Positions 35,094-44,309 of a DNA stretch of 64,000 nucleotides are shown in pieces. The notes below the pieces were generated by a model that saw only the letters and a program-made list of their open reading frames with translations, did no database searches and had not been told where the DNA came from. The stretch is taken from positions 186,001 through 250,000 of the forward strand of contig NC_019689.1 of assembly GCF_000317025.1 (NCBI RefSeq), read 5' to 3'. Positions within the stretch are counted from its first letter, which is position 1. Each line of letters opens with the position of its first letter. The stretch is from Pleurocapsa sp. PCC 7327. GTDB lineage: Bacteria > Cyanobacteriota > Cyanobacteriia > Cyanobacteriales > Microcystaceae. The translations under genes and the position numbers were made by a program.

Positions 35094-36857
35094 CTAAGAA
35101 CTAGCGATCGCCCGCTTGTAAGAGTCAGACAACAAAGCTTTTGTCTCCGACTCGGCAGCTTTTCGCAACTGTCTGGTAATCTGGAAGCTAACAAGTCCGA
35201 TCGCCAGCCATTGCCCCAACAGCGACAGGCAAAGCGTCGTCGTGCTGACGTAATCGACCGCCCAGACTGAAGCTAGAGAAAAGAGACCGAATGCAGCTAT
35301 TCTGCTCGGGTCGCCGCTGCTAAAGAGAGCCATAATGGCTAAAGGCAAGAAAATCAGCACAGTGACCGTCGCCGATGCCCAAATCGTTCTTTTTTGACTC
35401 TTCATCATTAGCATCAGTTGAGCGATCGCAGCGTAAATCAGGATCGTCCCCAAATCGAGCAGCACCCCTGCCAGAAGGCGAAGCTTGTGGTCTTCGAGGG
35501 GAAATAGAAAGATCGAAGGGACGATGAAAGACGTGACAATTAATAAATTCAGCGCGATCGCAACTGTAGAAGGACTTTTGTCTCCCCAGATTAATTCTTT
35601 GAGCAAGTGGCGACGATCTCGACTCATCTGATGACGATATCTTACCCAATCTTGCAGTGTCTGGCGATGGGGACTCAAACCTGCCATCAAAAGCAAGAAC
35701 AGAAGTAATACAAAAGCTTGCAACATCAAGAAGTTCTCGTAGAGTTGATAGGATTCGGTCGTTTGTAAGGTAAATCCGAGAATCATTGCTGCAAAACAGC
35801 CAGAAATCGCATAACTTTGTCCCTTACTCCACAGCATAGCTAGCGGATTGTGGAAACGGCGTTTTAGTCCCTGTGCGATCCAGTAAATCCACAATCCATA
35901 GTTGACAAGCATAAAACCAACGCCAGTCCAAACATTGCGCCAAAGCGATTGCCCGTACCAAAGCAAATTGTTTAGCCCCCCACCCGATTGGTAGGCATTT
36001 TCTAACGCTAAATAGCCAACTGTTTTTGACGGGAGAAAAGTAGCATGAACCAGATAGGGCAAGACAGTACCGGGATAGAGTAAAGCTAACCAATCAAAGG
36101 GAGTATGAGTTGCTACAGTCCCTAACCTAACAAAATTCGTTAAGCACAACAGGAAAAACAAAACAACCCCGCTACCCAACCAAGCTTGAAAACCTCCCAA
36201 CCCAGTCGTAACGAGTCCGAACAACAAAGCAGCACTCCAGAAGAAAACGCAGCTTGTTGCTAAAACGCCATAGAAACCCAAGATCGCTCCCAAAGAAATG
36301 CGTGCGGACAATCCTGCAACTAGGTGCAAAGGCAGTGCCAGTACCACTGCTAGGCACAATACCACTGGCACCCCTAGCATTTTCCCCAAGAGAATAGTTT
36401 TGGCAGACTGAGGACTGAGGCGGATAAAATTGAGCGTTCCCCGCCTCTCTTCCTGAGACAAGTCAGCAATGAGCATCCAGGTTCCTGCTACCAGTAAAGC
36501 AAAAATGGCGATAAAACTCAAACAGACAAATATATCTAGCCACCACAGCTGCCAGTTGAGCATCCAGTTGCCCAGCAAGTCTTTGACGCAGAAGTTATCG
36601 CTACTGTGGGGATAGGGAGTGTAGCCATTCCAATCCATCGGGGGACTGCCAATGCAGTAGCGATTGAATAGATCGTTTGTTGTTAGGTTGGCGCTAACCG
36701 CAGGAAGAGATGCTCGATAGTAGAAATAGACTAATAGCTGTACTACCAGAGAAATTCCAGAAGCGATGACGAGATTGCGAGGTTGCAATCGTCCTTTGAG
36801 TTCTCGAAACAGTTGAGGATTGATCTCGCCCAAGCGATCGATTAACGTTGATATCAT
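35094..36857 (-). CDS. ABC-2 type transporter permease
   Basis: A 587-residue membrane subunit with about twelve hydrophobic segments in an ABC-2-like arrangement. The region DLSQEERRGTLNFIRLSPQSAKTILLGKMLGVP is the conserved cytoplasmic stretch that contacts the ATPase. It lies downstream of the ATP-binding gene (37256-38206) on the same strand and is its obvious partner. A relic of a second, related permease sits between the two. Substrate not predictable; such systems export lipids, peptides or polysaccharide precursors. Confidence 0.85.
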   Translation of the reverse strand: MISTLIDRLGEINPQLFRELKGRLQPRNLVIASGISLVVQLLVYFYYRASLPAVSANLTTNDLFNRYCIGSPPMDWNGYTPYPHSSDNFCVKDLLGNWMLNWQLWWLDIFVCLSFIAIFALLVAGTWMLIADLSQEERRGTLNFIRLSPQSAKTILLGKMLGVPVVLCLAVVLALPLHLVAGLSARISLGAILGFYGVLATSCVFFWSAALLFGLVTTGLGGFQAWLGSGVVLFFLLCLTNFVRLGTVATHTPFDWLALLYPGTVLPYLVHATFLPSKTVGYLALENAYQSGGGLNNLLWYGQSLWRNVWTGVGFMLVNYGLWIYWIAQGLKRRFHNPLAMLWSKGQSYAISGCFAAMILGFTLQTTESYQLYENFLMLQAFVLLLFLLLMAGLSPHRQTLQDWVRYRHQMSRDRRHLLKELIWGDKSPSTVAIALNLLIVTSFIVPSIFLFPLEDHKLRLLAGVLLDLGTILIYAAIAQLMLMMKSQKRTIWASATVTVLIFLPLAIMALFSSGDPSRIAAFGLFSLASVWAVDYVSTTTLCLSLLGQWLAIGLVSFQITRQLRKAAESETKALLSDSYKRAIASS

Positions 36858-36940
36858 TGTTTGCTATTCCTCACGACTAGAAAAATAACCATCTAAAAAA
36901 GACACAAAGCGAAGGGTTCTCTATCTGCGATCGCTAGTTA

Positions 36941-37125
36941 CTAATAATAGTTTCCTTGAGCCAGCAAAGCTTTTGTGCCCGACTCTCCTGCTTTTTGCAA
37001 CTGTTGAGTCATTATTTGGAAACCCAGTAAAGTAATAACTAACCATTGACAGACAACATTGTTGTCGTGGCAGATTCGGTTGCTACTCCTGGAAGACACG
37101 AGAGCAACCAAACCCAGATTAACTC
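36941..37125 (-). pseudogene. C-terminal relic of a second ABC permease
   Basis: On the minus strand this stretch reads QWLVITLLGFQIMTQQLQKAGES followed by GTKALLAQGNYY and a stop at 36941-36943. It aligns with the end of the adjacent intact permease (QWLAIGLVSFQITRQLRKAAES, ETKALLSDSYK). In a neighbouring frame just upstream, ATESATTTMLSV matches that protein's VDYVSTTTLCLSL. Only the last 50 or so residues are left. It lies between the ATPase and the intact permease, where a second permease gene would have been. Confidence 0.75.
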
Positions 37126-37255
37126 ATTTATATTAGTTTCTCTCAATAGAGAAGCAATATAGCAATATTCATCCTTTATCATTAGACCTCTTGCATAAAT
37201 GTTTTTTCTGACGCAAAGGATTCCGCTAAGTTAATGGCTTTTGCCAGAAGTTTAT

Positions 37256-38206
37256 TCAAGAAACTTGCTTGTGTCCGAGTTTGAGGAAAATAGATTCCAA
37301 ATCTTCGGCGGTACAGTGAAACTCTTTCAGAGGAATTCCCGCAGCGACAAGCGATCGCAACAATTCGGCACTCTCTTCATCTCCTCCAGAAAAATCGATT
37401 CGCAAACTATTTTTTTGAGACAAAACTTCCCAACCTTCTACGCAGGGATGATTTTTTAACTCTCCCTTTAGCGCTTCTAAGTCTCCCAAGGTTGATATAA
37501 CAATTTGCTGGCGCGATAGACGCTCATACAACTCTTGTAGCGAAGCACTTTCAACCAGAAAACCCAGTTCCATAATCCCCACCGAAGAGCATAATTCTGC
37601 TAGATCGCTGAGAACGTGGGAGGAGATCAAAATGGTCATGCCTGCTGCTTGCAAAACCTTGATAATTTCCCGAAACTGCATCCGCGCGATCGGATCTAAA
37701 CCAGAAACAGGTTCGTCGAGTAACAGTAAAATCGGTTCGTGAATAATCGTGCGTGCCAAACTCAGGCGTTGTTTCATCCCCCGCGAGAGAGTGGCAATGA
37801 GACTGTGGCGCTTGCTGGTTAGTTGGACTAATTCCAGTACTTCCTGCAAGCGACGGCGACGGTGAGGTTGTCTAAGTCGATAAAGTCGTGCGAAGTAGTC
37901 TAAATAATCCCAAACCGTCAGATCGTCGTATAGAGGAAAGTCGTCGGGAAGATAACCGAGGCGCTGTTTCAGTCGTGGATTGCTGTCATCGCGCAGCAAG
38001 CGATCGCCGTGGATATAGATTTCTCCTATAGTCGGTTCCTCTGCTGCTGCCAGCATTCGGATCAGAGTGGTTTTTCCGGCACCATTAGGACCGATCAGTC
38101 CGTAAACTTCTCCGCTCTCAACCCGTAATTCTATGTTATTTACGGCGATGTACCGATCGAATTGTTTGGTCAGTCCGTAGGTTGCGATCGCCAGTTCCTG
38201 TCCCAT
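37256..38206 (-). CDS. ABC transporter ATP-binding protein
   Basis: ATPase subunit of 316 residues with Walker A GPNGAGKTTL at about 38-47, Q-loop in LGYLPDDFPLYDDLTVWDYL, signature LSRGMKQRLSLART, Walker B LLLLDEPVSGLDP and the switch histidine in ILISSHVLSDLAEL. The C-terminal 90 residues form the extra domain seen in ABC-2 exporters. It lies upstream of the permease on the same strand, with about 400 bases between them that contain the permease relic. Confidence 0.93.
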   Translation of the reverse strand: MGQELAIATYGLTKQFDRYIAVNNIELRVESGEVYGLIGPNGAGKTTLIRMLAAAEEPTIGEIYIHGDRLLRDDSNPRLKQRLGYLPDDFPLYDDLTVWDYLDYFARLYRLRQPHRRRRLQEVLELVQLTSKRHSLIATLSRGMKQRLSLARTIIHEPILLLLDEPVSGLDPIARMQFREIIKVLQAAGMTILISSHVLSDLAELCSSVGIMELGFLVESASLQELYERLSRQQIVISTLGDLEALKGELKNHPCVEGWEVLSQKNSLRIDFSGGDEESAELLRSLVAAGIPLKEFHCTAEDLESIFLKLGHKQVS

Positions 38207-38541: not shown

Positions 38542-39177
38542 ATGAGTGACATTGCCAAAGAACAGATGAGAGACAGACTGGGCAACATCGACCAAATTCG
38601 CAATTTATTATTCGGAAAACAGATTGAAGAATACGAACAACGATTTAAAAGTTGCGATAGCCGCCTCGACAAGCTTGAATCAGACCTGGCCGGTTTTCAA
38701 TTAGAAATCCGCGATCGCCTTACTCAGCTTCAAGAATCTCTCTCTAGTGAAATCCGCTCTAGACTTGATTCTCTTGAGAAGAAACTCAAGTATTTTAGTT
38801 TAACAACTCACGAAGAAACTAGCAAACTTCAACAGGCAGTTAACTTGACCGATCAAAAAATTTCTCAAGGAGTCGAATCCCTGGATCGAAAATTTAACCA
38901 TCAAGCCAATTTTTTAAAAAATGAAATAGCTCAAACTAGAGAAAAATTAGAAGGAGAATTTCAATTCTTAAAAACACAAATTTTTGCCGAACTTGAGAAA
39001 GGAATGTCAGAACTCAAAGATGGCAAAGTTTCTCGGGTAGATTTAGCAGAAGTTTTATTTGAATTATGTTTAAAGATTAAAGGAACTGAATTCGTTCCCA
39101 ACCTAAAAGAAGCGGCAGACAATCACGTCCAAGCAGATTTTTTGTTGCCAGAGCAATCAGAAGAACAAACCCATTAA
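38542..39177 (+). CDS. coiled-coil protein at the head of the OmpA/GTPase cluster
   Basis: A 211-residue soluble protein, almost entirely heptad-rich from about residue 25 to 165 (EQRFKSCDSRLDKLESDLAG, RSRLDSLEKKLKYFSL, EFQFLKTQIFAELEKGMSEL), then a short conserved-looking tail (GKVSRVDLAEVLFELCLKIKGTE). No signal peptide or membrane segment. I do not recognise a named family. It lies 138 bases before the OmpA gene on the same strand; the N-terminal half of that protein also has coiled-coil character, so the two may interact. Function unknown. Confidence 0.7.
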   Translation: MSDIAKEQMRDRLGNIDQIRNLLFGKQIEEYEQRFKSCDSRLDKLESDLAGFQLEIRDRLTQLQESLSSEIRSRLDSLEKKLKYFSLTTHEETSKLQQAVNLTDQKISQGVESLDRKFNHQANFLKNEIAQTREKLEGEFQFLKTQIFAELEKGMSELKDGKVSRVDLAEVLFELCLKIKGTEFVPNLKEAADNHVQADFLLPEQSEEQTH

Positions 39178-39315
39178 TCTGATACCAATTTGAAAAATTT
39201 TGGCTACAGATAGATTTTTCAACCCTTTATGGGATTGGTCTTTCTCAATCCTTTCATCCAAAATCTAAAATCCAAAATGGTATGAGTGACGGAAAGCGAG
39301 ATCGGGTAGCAGAAT

Positions 39316-41403
39316 ATGGCGCGATCGCAAGAAAATTCGTCTAGTAAAAAATCTGAATCCGCTAACTCCAATCCAGAAGCAACAGACTCGTTAGAGGAGT
39401 TAATCGCTTTACTGAACGATTTGGGATTAGCAAAGGAGGATTTAAATAAGTTTTCTACTTCTTCAAAACAACAAGCCAAACAACAGCCGCAGTCAAATCC
39501 TTCAAACCTCCTGCCTGACAATCCCGACTTATTATCTTTGCATCGGGCAGTCGTCGAGCTAAAAGAAAAGTTAGAAAGGCTAGAAAATCAAGTTTACGAA
39601 CCAACAGATTTAATTAATCCCCTTCTCCCCTTAATTACAGAACTGCTCAATATTAAATCGATAGAGTCGCAAGAATCCCTGCTCAAAGCTCTCATTCCGA
39701 TTATTGACGAGGTGATTCAACAGCGATCCGGGCAGGATTTCCAGAAAATGGGAGAGGCGATCGCGCCTGTTCTGCCGACGGCAATTGCCCATGAAATTAA
39801 AAATTCGCCCACAGAAATAGCCAAAGCGATCGCTCCAGAAATGGCGATCGCTATACAAGAACAAATTCGACTCGATCCCGGTGCGATCGCAACAACTCTG
39901 GGGCCGCAAATGGGCGAAGCGATCAAAAATCAAATCAAGGTCGAACAGAATGCGATGGTGGATGCCCTCTATCCCGTCATCGGCAGCACCATCTCTAAAT
40001 ACATGGTCGAACTCGTTAAATCCATCAACGAAAAAGTCGAATCGGCTTTCAGTTTTGAGGGAATCAAACGCAAAATTCGCGCCAAGCTTCAAGGTGTCTC
40101 AGAAGCCGAACTAATTCTCCAAGAAGCCATTAACTATGAAGTGCAGGCAGTTTTTCTCATTCACAAAACGTCGGGTTTAGTCATCCGCGAACTTCATCCA
40201 TCTTTGGAGTTGAGGCTGGAAGCTGATATGTTGGCGGGGTTGCTAACGGCTATCCGCAGCTTTGTCAACGAATGTATCGTACAGCCAGGAGAAGTATCCG
40301 AACTCAACCAAATCGAATACGATGCCTCCACCATCGTTCTAGAAGTTGCGGGCTACTGCTACATCGCCGCCGTCATCAGGGGTTCGCCCTCCAAACGCTA
40401 CATGCAAAAACTCCGAAAAACCCTCGGTCAGATTGTCCTTAAATACGGCAAGTTCATCGCTGCCTACGATGGCGATCCCGCAGCGATTCCCAATTCTATA
40501 GAACCGCTGCTAGAAAAGTTAACTAGAACTGAAGCACAAGAGAAAGCCTCTAAGCCGCCCTATGCTCTGCTAGCGATCCTCGGTGCCATAATTTTTTTCT
40601 GGGGATTCGTGCTTTATCGAGGCAGCGTTGCCAATCGCATCGAAGCTAAAACCAGTGCTGCTTTGGATGCTGCGCCAGAATTATCTATCTATCGGATCTC
40701 TCCTGAGATGCATTGGGATAAATTGACGCTCGCCGGAAGAGTTCCCAATCAATATCTAAAAGACAAAGCCGGAAAAATCGCCAGCCAAGTCGCACCAAAT
40801 CTTAAAATAGACAATCAAATTATCGCCGTAGAAGTCCCAGCCGATCCCGTACTAACCGCAGGAGAGATAGAAAGAGTCGCCTGGATTTTTAATCAAAAAG
40901 AAGGCGTGGCGATTACTGCCCATCACGATTACAACACCAAGACAGTCACGATTGAAGGAATCGTACCCGATCGCAGCGCAGCCGAACAAATTACCCAGGT
41001 ATTCAAAAACATTCCAGGCGTTGAAACCGTCACTAATACAGTACAGATTCGACCGATTCTTGAGACTCGCATTTACTTTGAATCGGGTTCGACTAAATAT
41101 AGTTCTCCCGACACCGCCGATCGCCTCAGAGCCATTCGACTATTTCTCGATCGCAATCCAGGGGTTCATCTGAGGATTATCGGTCATACCGATGATACGG
41201 GAGATCGACCCAAAAATCAGGATTTGGGTATCCAACGCGCTCGCCTTGTCCAACAGGCATTGATTGCCGAGCAAATCGAACCTTCCCGATTACACGTTTC
41301 TGGCAGTGCCGAACTTCCTCCCGGCGTTACCCCAGATCGACCTCTATGGTTAAGCCGTTGCGTCCGCTTTGAAGTCTTTATTCCTTCCCCAGGCGATCGC
41401 TAA
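39316..41403 (+). CDS. OmpA family protein with cytoplasmic roadblock/longin-like domain
   Basis: A 695-residue protein with an unusual topology. There is no signal peptide: residues 1-410 should be cytoplasmic, with a charged low-complexity start, an Ile/Ala/Pro-rich helical repeat region (120-235) and, at 276-395, a block (VQAVFLIHKTSGLVIRE, LEADMLAGLLTAIRSFV, TIVLEVAGYCYIAAVIRG) that resembles roadblock/longin folds that dock small GTPases. One membrane helix (about 416-435) follows, then a periplasmic BON-like region (440-580; VTIEGIVPDRSAAEQITQVF) and an OmpA peptidoglycan-binding domain (583-690; IYFESGSTKY, IIGHTDDTGD, GIQRARLVQQAL). A Ras-like GTPase gene follows 137 bases later. The roadblock/longin assignment is by eye. 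Confidence 0.85.
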   Translation: MARSQENSSSKKSESANSNPEATDSLEELIALLNDLGLAKEDLNKFSTSSKQQAKQQPQSNPSNLLPDNPDLLSLHRAVVELKEKLERLENQVYEPTDLINPLLPLITELLNIKSIESQESLLKALIPIIDEVIQQRSGQDFQKMGEAIAPVLPTAIAHEIKNSPTEIAKAIAPEMAIAIQEQIRLDPGAIATTLGPQMGEAIKNQIKVEQNAMVDALYPVIGSTISKYMVELVKSINEKVESAFSFEGIKRKIRAKLQGVSEAELILQEAINYEVQAVFLIHKTSGLVIRELHPSLELRLEADMLAGLLTAIRSFVNECIVQPGEVSELNQIEYDASTIVLEVAGYCYIAAVIRGSPSKRYMQKLRKTLGQIVLKYGKFIAAYDGDPAAIPNSIEPLLEKLTRTEAQEKASKPPYALLAILGAIIFFWGFVLYRGSVANRIEAKTSAALDAAPELSIYRISPEMHWDKLTLAGRVPNQYLKDKAGKIASQVAPNLKIDNQIIAVEVPADPVLTAGEIERVAWIFNQKEGVAITAHHDYNTKTVTIEGIVPDRSAAEQITQVFKNIPGVETVTNTVQIRPILETRIYFESGSTKYSSPDTADRLRAIRLFLDRNPGVHLRIIGHTDDTGDRPKNQDLGIQRARLVQQALIAEQIEPSRLHVSGSAELPPGVTPDRPLWLSRCVRFEVFIPSPGDR

Positions 41404-41540
41404 AAGACTCCTCTTGCTAATTTGGAATTTTAGATACGCAGACTCGATAAAATAAAAAAATTACGGGAATTTCCCCATCTTAAGACGACATGCAAGTTAA
41501 ACTTTTATAAACTTATAAAAGTTCCTATCTGATTGTTGAT

Positions 41541-42083
41541 ATGTCCGTCATCTCTAAAAAGATTTGTTTCATTGGCGACTACGGGGTTGGCAAAACGAGT
41601 TTAATTCGTCGTTTTGTAGACCGACAGTTTAGCGATCAATATTTGTCAACGCTTGGGGTAAAAATTTCGCGAAAGCTAGTCGAAATAGCAACTCCGAAGG
41701 GGATAGAACGGCAGAAAGTCCAATTGCTGATCTGGGATCTCGAAGGACGAACCAAATTTCATGCGATTACTTCGAGTTATTTGCAAGGAGCAACCGGAGC
41801 GATTATTGTCGCCGATCTCAATCGTCGGGATACGATCGCACGCATCCGGGAACATGTCGAATTAGTTTCTCGTGCCAATCCCAAAGGAATTAGCGCGATC
41901 GTAGCCTTGAATAAATCGGATCTTTTTGACGGAGACGAGTTGGAAAATCTCTCTGAAATTGCTCGATTTCAAGACCATCCTCACATTCTCCCCACCTATA
42001 TCACTTCTGCAAGGACGGGCGAAAACGTCGATGAAATCTTCCAAAAATTAGCCCACCGTATGTTAGAAGGCGTAACTGTATAG
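41541..42083 (+). CDS. Ras-like small GTPase
   Basis: A 180-residue stand-alone bacterial GTPase of the Ras/Rab/Arf type. P-loop GDYGVGKTS at 12-20 (Lys18, Thr19), switch I around STLGVKI with a candidate Thr, G3 DLEGR at 66-70, G4 NKSD at 124-127 and G5 TSAR. The catalytic Gln usual after G3 is replaced by Arg (DLEGR), so GTP hydrolysis may need a partner. It sits between the OmpA protein and the CBS-GGDEF-EAL gene, 24 bases from the latter, suggesting one signalling unit. It has no lipidation motif. MglA-type polarity GTPases are the nearest functional comparison; this is inference. Confidence 0.9.
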   Translation: MSVISKKICFIGDYGVGKTSLIRRFVDRQFSDQYLSTLGVKISRKLVEIATPKGIERQKVQLLIWDLEGRTKFHAITSSYLQGATGAIIVADLNRRDTIARIREHVELVSRANPKGISAIVALNKSDLFDGDELENLSEIARFQDHPHILPTYITSARTGENVDEIFQKLAHRMLEGVTV

Positions 42084-42107
42084 TCGAGCAACCTAAGCTG
42101 TATCTGT

Positions 42108-44309
42108 ATGACTCTAGACAAGGCGATCGACAAAAACCCCCCGATTGTTTCTGCCCAAGCGTCAGTAAAAGAAGCGATCGCGCTGATGGAACAAACGCAA
42201 GTCGGTTGCGTCTTGGTCGTCGAGCAGCAAAAGTTAGTCGGGAGCTTGAGCGAACGAGATGTCCTCAAATTAATTGCCTCAAGACAAGATTGGCAAGAAA
42301 TCGCGATCGCCAAAGTCATGACTCGAAACTTGGTTAGGCTTTCCGTCAAGAATGTAGCGGATCTTTCCTCTCTACTGCACCCATTGCGCCAGCATTGCCT
42401 CGAATATCTACCCATTGTGACCGAAGATAATCGAGTTTTCGGTCTCGTTACTCGTGCGAAGCTCCTAGAAAGCTTACCGCCCGAAATCACCAACGCGATC
42501 GATACGAATGCCCGACTCAGGCAAGAACTCGAAGCTTATCGGGAGATAGAAGAAGAACTGCGGACAAACGAACAAGCACTGCAACTCAACCAAAATCGCT
42601 TAGACAGCATCCTCAGTTCGATTGAAGATGTCGTTTGGTCGATAGAACCCCATAGCTTGCAGTTACTTTTCCTCAACACGGCAGTCGAGCAGGTTTACGG
42701 TCGCAAACTGGCAGAGTTTATTGAAAATATCGAACTGTGGCGAGAAGTCATTCATCCAGAAGATAAAGAACGGGTAGAAGAGGCACTCAATGCCTTGTAC
42801 TCCACTGGCAGAGAAGAATTAGAATACCGAATTTTATTACCTGACGGCGAGATCCGCTGGATTCGCGTTCGCTCCCGTCTAATTACCGATGAAGAGGGCA
42901 CGCCTGTCCGCATTGATGGCATTACTACTGATATCACAGATCGTCACAAAATTCAAGAGCAATTGCGGCACGATGCCTTTCACGATGGACTGACAGGTTT
43001 ACCCAACCGGAATTTGTTGCTCGATCGCCTCAAGCAAACCATTCGCCGCAGCCAACGACGAGATGGCTATCGCTTTGCCTTGCTCTTTTTAGACCTCGAT
43101 CGCTTTAAAATTGTTAACGACAGTCTCGGTCACGTATTCGGCGATCGCCTCTTGGTTTCCGTCGCCCATCGCCTGGAAAAATGTCAGCGTGCCGGAGATA
43201 CAGTGGCTCGTTTTGGAGGCGACGAATTTGTCATTTTGCTTGAGGAAATAGCCGATGCGAACGACGCGATTCAAATCGCCAATCGCGTCCAAAATGCCTT
43301 AAAAACGCCCATTATTATTGATAATCAGGAAATATTCGTCGCCGCTAGCATTGGCATCGTTATCGGCAATTCTAGAACTTACCCCAATCCCGAACAAGTG
43401 ACCGATCTGTTGCGAGACGCGGATATCGCCATGTATCGGGCTAAGGCTCGCAGTCAGGGAAACTACGAAGTATTCGATCCCTCGATGTATACTTATGCTC
43501 TCAAGCGATTGCAGTTAGAAAATGACCTGCGCCGAGCGCTCGCTCGCACGACTTCGCCAGAGGCAACCCAGCCGGAATTTTCCGTTTACTATCAGCCAAT
43601 TTTTTCGATCGCAACTCAGCAAATTGAAGGCTTCGAGGCGCTCGTCCGCTGGCAACACCCAGAAAAGGGGACGATCTCGCCAGTCGATTTTATCGCGATC
43701 GCAGAAGAAACGGGGCTGATCGTTCCTCTCGATCGCTGGGTTTTAAAGACGGCTTGCTACCAGTTACGCGCTTGGCAAGCGCAATTCCCAATGCCCGCAC
43801 CGCTGACTGTAAGCGTCAATCTCTCTGGCAAGCATTTTTACCAGCCTGGTTTAATCGAATTTCTCGATCGCGTTCTTGAGGAAACGGGTTTAGACGGCAG
43901 AACTTTAAAGTTAGAGATTACTGAAAGCATCGTGATTGAAAATACCGAAGCGGCAGCAATTATGCTCAAGCAACTGAGGGAGCGCCAGGTTCAAGCCTGC
44001 CTCGATGATTTTGGCACGGGCTATTCGTCTTTAAGTTATCTGCACAGTTTCCCGTTTAACACGTTAAAGATCGATCGCTCTTTCATCAAACAATTGGGCA
44101 TGGAAGAAGAAAACGATGAAATTGTCAAGGCGATTGTTAATTTGGGTTTAATCCTGGGAATGAATGTCGTTGCCGAAGGCGTAGAAACCCCAGAACAAGT
44201 GGCGCAATTGAAAGACTTGAACTGTCATTACGGGCAAGGGTATTGGTTCTCCAGACCGATGAACGGTGAAGCCATGACCGAGTTTTTGCTCGGCGCGATC
44301 GAGAGTTGA
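42108..44309 (+). CDS. CBS-PAS-GGDEF-EAL cyclic-di-GMP enzyme
   Basis: A 733-residue cytoplasmic protein combining a tandem CBS pair (about 5-125; ALMEQTQVGCVLVV, LVGSLSERDVLKLIA), a PAS/PAC unit (about 160-285), a diguanylate cyclase domain with intact GGDEF at 370-374 and an inhibitory RxxD site (Arg362-Asp365) five residues upstream, and a phosphodiesterase domain with EAL at 510-512 and DDFGTG. Both catalytic motifs look complete, so it may make or break c-di-GMP depending on signals; CBS domains often bind adenylates and could sense energy state or a cyclic dinucleotide. It follows the GTPase gene by 24 bases, almost certainly in one operon. Confidence 0.93.
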   Translation: MTLDKAIDKNPPIVSAQASVKEAIALMEQTQVGCVLVVEQQKLVGSLSERDVLKLIASRQDWQEIAIAKVMTRNLVRLSVKNVADLSSLLHPLRQHCLEYLPIVTEDNRVFGLVTRAKLLESLPPEITNAIDTNARLRQELEAYREIEEELRTNEQALQLNQNRLDSILSSIEDVVWSIEPHSLQLLFLNTAVEQVYGRKLAEFIENIELWREVIHPEDKERVEEALNALYSTGREELEYRILLPDGEIRWIRVRSRLITDEEGTPVRIDGITTDITDRHKIQEQLRHDAFHDGLTGLPNRNLLLDRLKQTIRRSQRRDGYRFALLFLDLDRFKIVNDSLGHVFGDRLLVSVAHRLEKCQRAGDTVARFGGDEFVILLEEIADANDAIQIANRVQNALKTPIIIDNQEIFVAASIGIVIGNSRTYPNPEQVTDLLRDADIAMYRAKARSQGNYEVFDPSMYTYALKRLQLENDLRRALARTTSPEATQPEFSVYYQPIFSIATQQIEGFEALVRWQHPEKGTISPVDFIAIAEETGLIVPLDRWVLKTACYQLRAWQAQFPMPAPLTVSVNLSGKHFYQPGLIEFLDRVLEETGLDGRTLKLEITESIVIENTEAAAIMLKQLRERQVQACLDDFGTGYSSLSYLHSFPFNTLKIDRSFIKQLGMEEENDEIVKAIVNLGLILGMNVVAEGVETPEQVAQLKDLNCHYGQGYWFSRPMNGEAMTEFLLGAIES

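What the first reader, a model, noticed from the sequence alone, without database searches (positions are those of the whole stretch)
38542..44309. Possible transenvelope GTPase switch tied to c-di-GMP
Four plus-strand genes in a row encode a coiled-coil protein, a protein with a long cytoplasmic part (including a roadblock/longin-like block at residues 276-395), one membrane helix and a periplasmic OmpA peptidoglycan anchor, a Ras-like GTPase, and a CBS-PAS-GGDEF-EAL enzyme only 24 bases from the GTPase. Roadblock and longin folds are the usual GTPase regulators in MglA/MglB-like systems, so the GTPase could be docked under the membrane at a cell-wall anchor and report to c-di-GMP. OmpA-family proteins rarely have such a large cytoplasmic half. 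The GTPase has Arg where Gln usually follows DxxG, so hydrolysis may depend on the partner. I do not know of a described system with this makeup.
Basis: partly seen in the sequence, partly recalled or inferred. Interest (0 to 1): 0.82.

Follow-up and report, generated by a model that had tools for sequence, protein, structure and literature searches.

The report
Envelope-anchored Ras-type GTPase signalling operon
Four neighbouring cyanobacterial genes form a small-GTPase signalling operon, already described from genomes in 2014 as the Rup Group 1 system, in which a cell-wall-anchored membrane protein carries a GTPase-partner fold that I did not find named in the literature searched, and in this lineage the usual output protein is replaced by a different c-di-GMP enzyme.

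Summary
Four plus-strand genes encode a coiled-coil protein, a helical/longin–TM–BON–BON–OmpA protein, a Ras-like GTPase, and a CBS–PAS–GGDEF–EAL enzyme 24 nt downstream. The makeup is not undescribed: it matches the 'Rup Group 1' neighbourhood (Wuichet & Søgaard-Andersen 2014, PMC4316618), known from genomes only. In 148 genomes of the order, strong matches to GTPase and OmpA protein co-occur almost perfectly (82 both, 4 one only, 62 neither), and 79 of 98 GTPase places lie within 600 bp downstream of the OmpA gene. (2) The output slot is modular: a shared unannotated N-terminal domain (FPEL-type) is joined to histidine kinases, GGDEF or class III cyclases. (3) No such domain was found in the window's genome; a CBS–PAS–GGDEF–EAL enzyme stands there, as in two other genomes. 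So c-di-GMP is this lineage's likely output, not the system's fixed output. No interaction, GAP/GEF activity or signal has been shown. I rate it a variant of a known system for which I found no experiments.

The parts
38542..39177 (+). coiled-coil cytoplasmic protein (gene 1, 211 aa)
   Evidence: a homologue in 42 of 49 loci that hold genes 2 and 3
39316..41403 (+). transenvelope protein (gene 2, 695 aa): disordered/helical N-part, longin-type domain, TM helix, BON x2, OmpA
39661..40128 (+). helical segment of gene 2 (residues 116-271) with A-P-E-[MI]-x-x-A-I-type repeats
   Evidence: secondary structure of the model, (block pLDDT mostly 53-72); alignment
40135..40524 (+). longin/roadblock-fold domain of gene 2 (residues 274-403)
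   Evidence: model of residues 240-405, pLDDT 85.6; Foldseek and VIA-align matches
40561..40626 (+). single membrane helix of gene 2 (residues about 416-437)
   Evidence: hydropathy maximum 2.23 at 416-434; helix in model
40687..41055 (+). two BON domains of gene 2 (residues about 458-580)
   Evidence: Pfam BON 1.5e-14, 2 stretches; Foldseek OsmY/DolP
41071..41385 (+). OmpA-type domain of gene 2 (residues about 586-690), presumed peptidoglycan-binding
   Evidence: Pfam OmpA 8.8e-11; Foldseek to Pal/OmpA chains; R641 invariant in the 35 aligned sequences
41541..42083 (+). Ras-like GTPase (gene 3, 180 aa): G1 GDYGVGKT, G3 DLEGR, G4 NKSD
   Evidence: best solved-structure matches are Rab1 and Rab43
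42108..44309 (+). CBS-CBS-PAS-GGDEF-EAL enzyme (gene 4, 733 aa); RxxD, GGDEF, EAL, DDFGTG motifs present
   Evidence: orthologue after the GTPase in L033 and L116
42108..42467 (+). CBS pair of gene 4 that stands where many other operons have the FPEL-type N-terminal domain
   Evidence: Pfam CBS, 2 stretches; no FPEL-domain match in the window's genome at E <= 1e-5

Best explanation
This is a lineage variant of the Rup Group 1 GTPase system. Inferred working: the OmpA/BON periplasmic part anchors the inner-membrane protein to peptidoglycan and senses envelope state. That state is passed through the TM helix to the cytoplasmic longin domain and helical stalk, which, with the coiled-coil protein, bind the Ras-like GTPase and set its GDP/GTP state. 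The loaded GTPase then controls the neighbouring output enzyme, here the CBS-PAS-GGDEF-EAL protein, and so the c-di-GMP level. Shown here: gene order, domain content, longin/roadblock fold by prediction, near-perfect co-occurrence of genes 2 and 3 in the order sampled, and different output genes in the same slot. Inferred: every contact, the direction of signalling, and the GAP or GEF role.
For: Co-occurrence and adjacency of genes 2 and 3 (82/1/3/62 of 148 genomes; 79 of 98 places within 600 bp). The coiled-coil gene was found in 42 of 49 loci that hold both genes 2 and 3 (loci chosen for holding the genes). Longin fold: pLDDT 85.6; VIA Z 12.8 TRAPP complex chain 2j3t_D (taken as Trs23 from its length), 12.5 Sec22b, 10.9 Asgard roadblock, 10.7 MglB; Foldseek matches include Mon1-Ccz1, TRAPP and Ragulator entries, several with a GTPase in the entry title. 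The GTPase is the only strong Ras match in its genome (100.5 bits; the next is 28.7), and its best solved-structure matches are Rab GTPases. Gene 4 orthologue in the same slot in L033 (24 nt) and L116 (52% identity). Gene 4 motifs present. No plus-strand terminator-like site in the three gaps between the genes. The 2014 paper reaches the same four-part makeup.
Against: No complex could be modelled (single chains only). A shared fold shows no function; longin domains also serve in SNAREs (passage of PMC10933270). In G043, which has genes 1-3, the gene-4 orthologue lies on another contig and a NeuB gene follows the GTPase. The gaps between genes 1-2 and 2-3 are about 140 nt, so co-transcription is not certain. 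19 of 98 GTPase places lack an OmpA gene within 600 bp upstream, and 11 lack one within 5 kb. The sequence profile of the longin domain matched no solved structure and Robl_LC7 matched only 1 of 59 members, at E 0.17. Terminator-like sites in the region are no fewer than in shuffles (11 vs 7.2), so their absence from short gaps says little.
Confidence: 0.55

Rival explanations
1. Genes 1-3 are a conserved GTPase module, but gene 4 is only a neighbour, so there is no GTPase to c-di-GMP link in this organism.
For: The gene-4 orthologue is apart from the GTPase in G043; relatives of its CBS-linker part are widespread in the order (110 of 148 genomes at E <= 1e-10); gene 4 lacks the FPEL-type N-terminal domain.
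Against: An FPEL-type protein is the next same-strand ORF in 35 of 57 GTPase loci, and the next ORF overlaps the GTPase by 4 nt in 11 of the 42 loci (recounted). The same gene-4 orthologue is adjacent in the window, Hydrococcus and G015, which carries another family label. G000 and G015 both lack FPEL domains.
Confidence: 0.3
2. The system is a spatial or polarity device like MglA/MglB: the wall-anchored longin protein marks a place in the envelope and the GTPase recruits machinery there, the second-messenger enzyme being local cargo.
For: Longin/roadblock plus small GTPase pairing as in MglA/MglB (VIA Z 10.7 to MglB); anchored platform with coiled-coil partner.
Against: Signalling enzymes rather than known motility or scaffold proteins fill the scanned output slots. 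Genes further out in the relatives were not annotated, so a link to motility genes was not tested.
Confidence: 0.2
3. The output protein's N-terminal region, not the OmpA protein, is the GTPase-activating part, giving a glutamine in trans (the 2014 proposal).
For: Two Gln positions (Q122, Q126) are at least 90% conserved in the 23 FPEL-type domains aligned; the paper reports an invariant Gln in the outputs' N-terminal region.
Against: 5 of 85 GTPase genomes showed no FPEL domain, the window's among them; the window GTPase lacks its own Gln as well; 9 of 58 relatives keep a Gln after the G3 motif, several beside FPEL outputs.
Confidence: 0.15

Closest known systems
Rup Group 1 small-GTPase system (Wuichet & Sogaard-Andersen 2014, PMC4316618)
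   Same: Ras-like GTPase lacking the G3 glutamine; coiled-coil protein; protein with a domain of unknown function, TM helix and OmpA domain; signal-output gene (GGDEF/EAL or histidine kinase); known in Cyanobacteria
   Different: In the window the FPEL-type N-terminal domain of the outputs is absent and a CBS pair stands in its place; the 'unknown' domain is given a longin-type fold here; class III cyclases and a Ser/Thr kinase are added as outputs
MglA/MglB polarity switch (Myxococcus, Thermus)
   Same: small GTPase with a roadblock/longin-fold partner (VIA Z 10.7 to MglB)
   Different: The GTPase has DxxG instead of MglA's TVPGQ/GTPGQ and no insertion between G1 and G2; the partner is a transmembrane, OmpA-domain protein and matches longins better than roadblocks
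Actinobacterial conservon (Cvn; AGPS)
   Same: GTPase + roadblock-type partner + signalling enzyme in one operon
   Different: MglA-type GTPase, membrane histidine kinase, separate MglB homologue, no OmpA anchor named (PMC4316618 section 18 read; PMC13343842 passages seen)
TRAPP and Mon1-Ccz1 longin GEFs for Rab GTPases
   Same: longin domain's best matches include TRAPP and Mon1-Ccz1 chains; GTPase best matches Rab1
   Different: eukaryotic multi-subunit vesicle machinery; no evidence of GEF activity here; fold similarity alone

Membership tests
Rup Group 1 system | Ras-superfamily GTPase of eukaryote-like G1-G5 pattern | tested here: met
   Pfam Ras 6.8e-29; GDYGVGKT, DLEG, NKSD, SA
Rup Group 1 system | no Gln after DxxG in G3 | tested here: met
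   DLEGR in the window; but 9 of 58 relatives do have Gln, so the feature is not strict in this sample
Rup Group 1 system | neighbouring coiled-coil cytoplasmic protein | tested here: met
   gene 1; homologue in 42 of 49 loci with genes 2 and 3
Rup Group 1 system | neighbouring protein with conserved domain, TM helix, OmpA domain | tested here: met
Rup Group 1 system | output gene: GGDEF/EAL or histidine kinase | tested here: met
   gene 4 GGDEF 3.7e-46 and EAL 1.4e-75
Rup Group 1 system | output protein's N-terminal region with an invariant Gln | tested here: not met
   no FPEL-domain match in the window's genome at E <= 1e-5; gene 4 has CBS domains instead. That the FPEL domain is the paper's N-terminal region is inferred; its logo was not seen. 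Hence filed as a variant
Rup Group 1 system | GTPase falls in the Rup Group 1 clade of the 2014 tree | not tested
   the paper's sequences were not at hand
MglA/MglB | G3 motif TVPGQ or GTPGQ and insertion between G1 and G2 | tested here: not met
   DLEGR; 19 positions from K18 to T37 as in Ras (MglA motifs from PMC4316618 passages; Ras spacing recalled)
longin/roadblock fold | alpha/beta fold b-b-a-b-b-b-a(-a) matching solved longins or roadblocks | tested here: met
   Z 12.8 over 124 residues, rmsd 3.0
longin/roadblock fold | longin rather than roadblock permutation | tested here: inconclusive
   longins lead (12.8 vs 10.9) and are aligned to model residue 166, but a helix also precedes strand 1
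OmpA_C-like peptidoglycan-binding domain | Pfam OmpA match and conserved D...R residues | tested here: met
   8.8e-11; GHTDDTG...NQDLGIQRARLV; binding itself not testable
GTPase activation (GAP or GEF) by gene 2 | stimulated hydrolysis or exchange | not testable with these tools
   needs purified proteins

The most novel reading that the evidence does not exclude
A Rab-like bacterial GTPase works with a TRAPP/MglB-like longin regulator that is itself bolted through the inner membrane to the cell wall, so envelope strain or growth sets the GTPase state. The GTPase drives interchangeable outputs (His kinase, c-di-GMP, class III cyclase, Ser/Thr kinase), and in this lineage the output has been swapped for a CBS-gated c-di-GMP enzyme without the supposed glutamine donor.
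Probability: 0.3. Interest if true: 0.78.

Novelty: new variant of a known kind. Interest (0 to 1): 0.52.

Why it matters
Rup Group 1 operons were reported in 2014 in several phyla, and the paper says no member had then been characterised experimentally. Finding a longin-type fold in their 'unknown' domain names a concrete candidate for the missing GTPase regulator and extends longin/GTPase pairing to a transenvelope bacterial protein, which bears on how such pairs arose before eukaryotes. The window's lineage lacks both the G3 glutamine and the FPEL domain that I take to be the proposed glutamine donor, so it is a natural test of the 2014 in-trans hypothesis. The shared N-terminal domain on different outputs makes effector specificity directly testable.

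Tried and rejected
Sequence routes to the fold failed: the longin-domain profile matched no solved chain at E <= 10, and Pfam gave only weak matches (Robl_LC7 in 1 of 59 members at 0.17; DUF6831 in 4 at best 0.001, not pursued). Only structure comparison showed it. I considered that the FPEL domain might be a second longin: profile comparison with the longin alignment gave probability 0.3%. Its likely PAS nature is unproven: PAS_9 matched 1 of 23 members at 0.023, Rv1364c chains (recalled as a PAS domain) matched at E 0.5, and the profile comparison with neighbouring PAS domains aligned only 13 linker residues.

Comparing distances of genes 1, 2 and 3 over 40 operons gave correlations 0.85-0.88. 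I do not count this as evidence of contact, since operons inherited together give the same. Promoter-like sites were no more frequent than in shuffles (10 vs 9.4). The one genome-contig scan returned only 2 loci. The phylum-wide search with the longin profile found matches in 34 of 292 genomes, a far lower share than in the window's order (98 of 148 with the whole protein), so the system is patchy in the phylum; I used it to pick further loci. Phage and E. coli collections were not searched.

The FPEL co-occurrence is partly circular because the profile was built from proteins mostly beside the GTPase; of the 7 FPEL genomes without a strong GTPase, G129 has a weaker one next to its FPEL protein (L091). 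The 42 loci and later loci were chosen mostly because they hold the genes. Output types were read for 36 of 57 FPEL-bearing ORFs in the loci.
Full report
WHAT IS THERE. The four genes are at the stated coordinates and in one orientation. Gene 1 (38542-39177) is a 211-aa coiled-coil-like protein. Gene 2 (39316-41403, 695 aa) has a poorly ordered N-terminus, a helical segment with repeated A-P-E-x-x-x-A-I motifs, an alpha/beta domain at residues 274-403, one hydrophobic helix at about 416-437, two BON domains and an OmpA domain. Gene 3 (41541-42083) is a Ras-like GTPase with intact G1 and G4 and Arg after DxxG. Gene 4 (42108-44309) is CBS-CBS-PAS-GGDEF-EAL with RxxD, GGDEF, EAL and DDFGTG motifs present (reading these as signs of activity is from general knowledge). 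No plus-strand terminator-like site lies in the three gaps. The window is part of a 4,986,817-base genome; the nearest named relative found is Hydrococcus rivularis NIES-593 (95% identity in gene 2).

IT IS ALREADY DESCRIBED. Wuichet & Sogaard-Andersen 2014 (PMC4316618; sections 16 and 18 read, other passages seen) describe Group 1 Rup GTPases. They lack the G3 glutamine and neighbour a coiled-coil protein, a protein with an unknown domain often followed by a TM helix and OmpA domain, and an output protein (GGDEF/EAL or histidine kinase) whose N-terminal region holds an invariant glutamine. The paper states that no Rup member had been characterised. In the open-access library, only this paper used the term for GTPases (2 papers, the other on stem-loop sequences). 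Searches for later work on this gene set showed nothing relevant in the rows listed (two searches listed 12 of 29 and 15 of 56). Most subscription papers are not in that library.

CONSERVATION. In 148 genomes of the order, relatives of gene 2 were found in 98 at E <= 0.001 and of the GTPase in 91 at E <= 1e-10. Keeping only the strong places (91 and 98), 82 genomes have both, 1 gene 2 only, 3 the GTPase only and 62 neither. 79 of 98 GTPase places have gene 2 within 600 bp upstream, 8 more within 5 kb, 8 have none on the same contig and strand, and 3 are far apart. Gene-1 homologues were found in 42 of 49 loci holding genes 2 and 3. In a phylum sample the longin profile matched 34 of 292 genomes, so the system is patchy; 6 of 7 sampled genomes of the window's own family other than itself lacked the GTPase at E <= 1e-10. 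A second, diverged class of the operon occurs in cyanobacteria (L085-L090) and on a Mesorhizobium plasmid (L114), where the annotated genes are hypothetical, OmpA family protein, Rab family GTPase and adenylate/guanylate cyclase. The longin-domain profile still matches there (135 bits).

THE UNKNOWN DOMAIN IS LONGIN/ROADBLOCK. Residues 240-405, folded with 58 relatives, gave mean pLDDT 85.6 and pTM 0.74 with strands and helices, after two leading helices, in the order b-b-a-b-b-b-a-a. The 50 Foldseek rows shown (of 923 with E <= 10) are, by title, adaptor, TRAPP, Mon1-Ccz1, SNARE-longin, Ragulator, CPLANE, COPI and roadblock entries: AP-1 sigma 2.8e-4, Mon1-Ccz1 4.0e-4, TRAPPII 6.8e-4, Ragulator 1.0e-3, a Streptomyces roadblock 2.3e-3. 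VIA-align gives a TRAPP chain (2j3t_D, taken as Trs23 from its length) 12.8 over 124 residues at 3.0 A, Sec22b 12.5, VAMP7 12.4, an Asgard roadblock 10.9 and MglB 10.7. The full-length model (pLDDT 71.0, pTM 0.34) independently hit a clathrin-adaptor chain (4p6z_S) at 3.9e-5, besides OmpA and BON structures. Longins score about 2 Z units above roadblocks and cover the last helix, so I call it longin-type, but a helix before strand 1 keeps the permutation open. Papers seen in passages say longins and roadblocks are circularly permuted relative to each other with a similar way of binding GTPases (PMC3521125; orientation also PMC10933270), and that longin/roadblock domains occur in bacteria (PMC4917890 table). 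The new point is therefore this protein, not the existence of the fold in bacteria. I found no paper joining longin to OmpA; one search's 10 listed papers of 50 look unrelated by title, and (12 of 15 listed) showed no paper on a bacterial longin by title.

THE OUTPUT SLOT IS MODULAR. Many proteins after the GTPase share an unannotated N-terminal domain of about 140 residues with an FPEL-x-G-x-E motif and two Gln positions at least 90% conserved. The next ORF after the GTPase carries it, on the same strand, in 35 of 57 GTPase-bearing loci; in 15 the next same-strand ORF is something else, in 6 the next ORF is on the other strand, and in 1 it is the CBS type (loci overlap in part and were chosen for the genes). 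The domain is found in 87 of 148 genomes; 80 of these also have a strong GTPase, 7 do not, and 5 GTPase genomes showed none. Of 36 such proteins scanned (of 57 in the loci; not all directly after a GTPase), 17 carry a histidine kinase, 8 GGDEF (one with a Ser/Thr kinase), 8 a class III cyclase and 3 no catalytic domain. None showed EAL at the thresholds used. This differs from the paper's 'typically' diguanylate cyclase/phosphodiesterase or kinase, perhaps by sampling. Some operons have other proteins in the slot, for example Hpt and receiver-kinase proteins in L034.

THE WINDOW'S VARIANT. The window's genome showed no FPEL domain. Its gene 4 has a CBS pair. The same orthologue follows the GTPase in H. 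rivularis (24 nt) and in G015 (52% identity, L116), a genome with another family label that also showed no FPEL domain. In G043, which shares G015's family label, the orthologue (59%) lies on another contig and NeuB follows the GTPase. In G042 and G084 no FPEL domain was found either; in G042 a Ser/Thr kinase is the next ORF, and in G084 a 678-aa protein that I did not scan follows an HNH-type ORF. This suggests that the output was exchanged more than once while genes 1-3 stayed; no tree was built to prove it.

ARG AFTER DxxG. In 58 GTPases of the other loci the residue is His in 25, Ser 10, Gln 9, Glu 9 (8 of them second-class), Asn 2, Gly 2 (degenerate copies) and Arg 1; the window and Hydrococcus also have Arg. 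Because the window lacks both this Gln and the FPEL domain, the idea that the output protein lends a glutamine cannot hold for it in the form proposed, unless a linker Gln of gene 4 serves or the FPEL domain is not the region meant. The longin protein is the better candidate regulator, but this is inference.

VERDICT. Real, conserved in its order, previously described in outline, with no experiments found in the literature I could search. The added value is the fold of the unknown domain, the modular output domain and the lineage-specific output. The mechanism stays a hypothesis.

Noticed in passing
L092:8851-9420 (-) and L097:9615-10196 (+): A second GTPase copy whose P-loop and NKxD motifs are degenerate (GDGLVxDxS, NQxD), directly followed by an FPEL-type histidine kinase: a likely pseudo-GTPase kept with its output.
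   Followed up: partly
L094:10086-10847 (+): Tandem GTPases: the first has altered G1 (GESEVGKNS) and G3 (WSITGH) and a C-terminal extension, the second is normal.
   Followed up: partly
L085-L090: Second operon class: coiled-coil gene in most, shorter longin-TM-OmpA protein, GTPase with Glu after DxxG, a protein of about 340 aa (shorter ORFs in L085 and L088) with a weak guanylate-cyclase match, and a HATPase protein of about 370 aa; Pfam read in L086 only.
   Followed up: partly
L118:9720-11756 (+): A Ser/Thr protein kinase (679 aa) is the next ORF after the GTPase in a genome where no FPEL domain was found.
   Followed up: partly
L076:6864-8888 (-): Ser/Thr kinase, FPEL-type domain and GGDEF in one protein after the GTPase.
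   Followed up: no
L065:7232-8374 (-): A NeuB-SAF (sialic-acid synthase-like) gene directly follows the GTPase where the output gene is expected.
   Followed up: no
outside the window, G000:C1:334098-334352 (-) and 3257034-3257267 (+): Two Robl_LC7 roadblock matches (233- and 219-aa open frames) although the genome has only one strong Ras-type GTPase.
   Followed up: no
35094-38206: ABC transporter permease and ATPase genes on the minus strand, divergent from the operon; also upstream in Hydrococcus (L033). Within five ORFs upstream, the other 41 loci showed only one weak ATPase match (L081).
   Followed up: no
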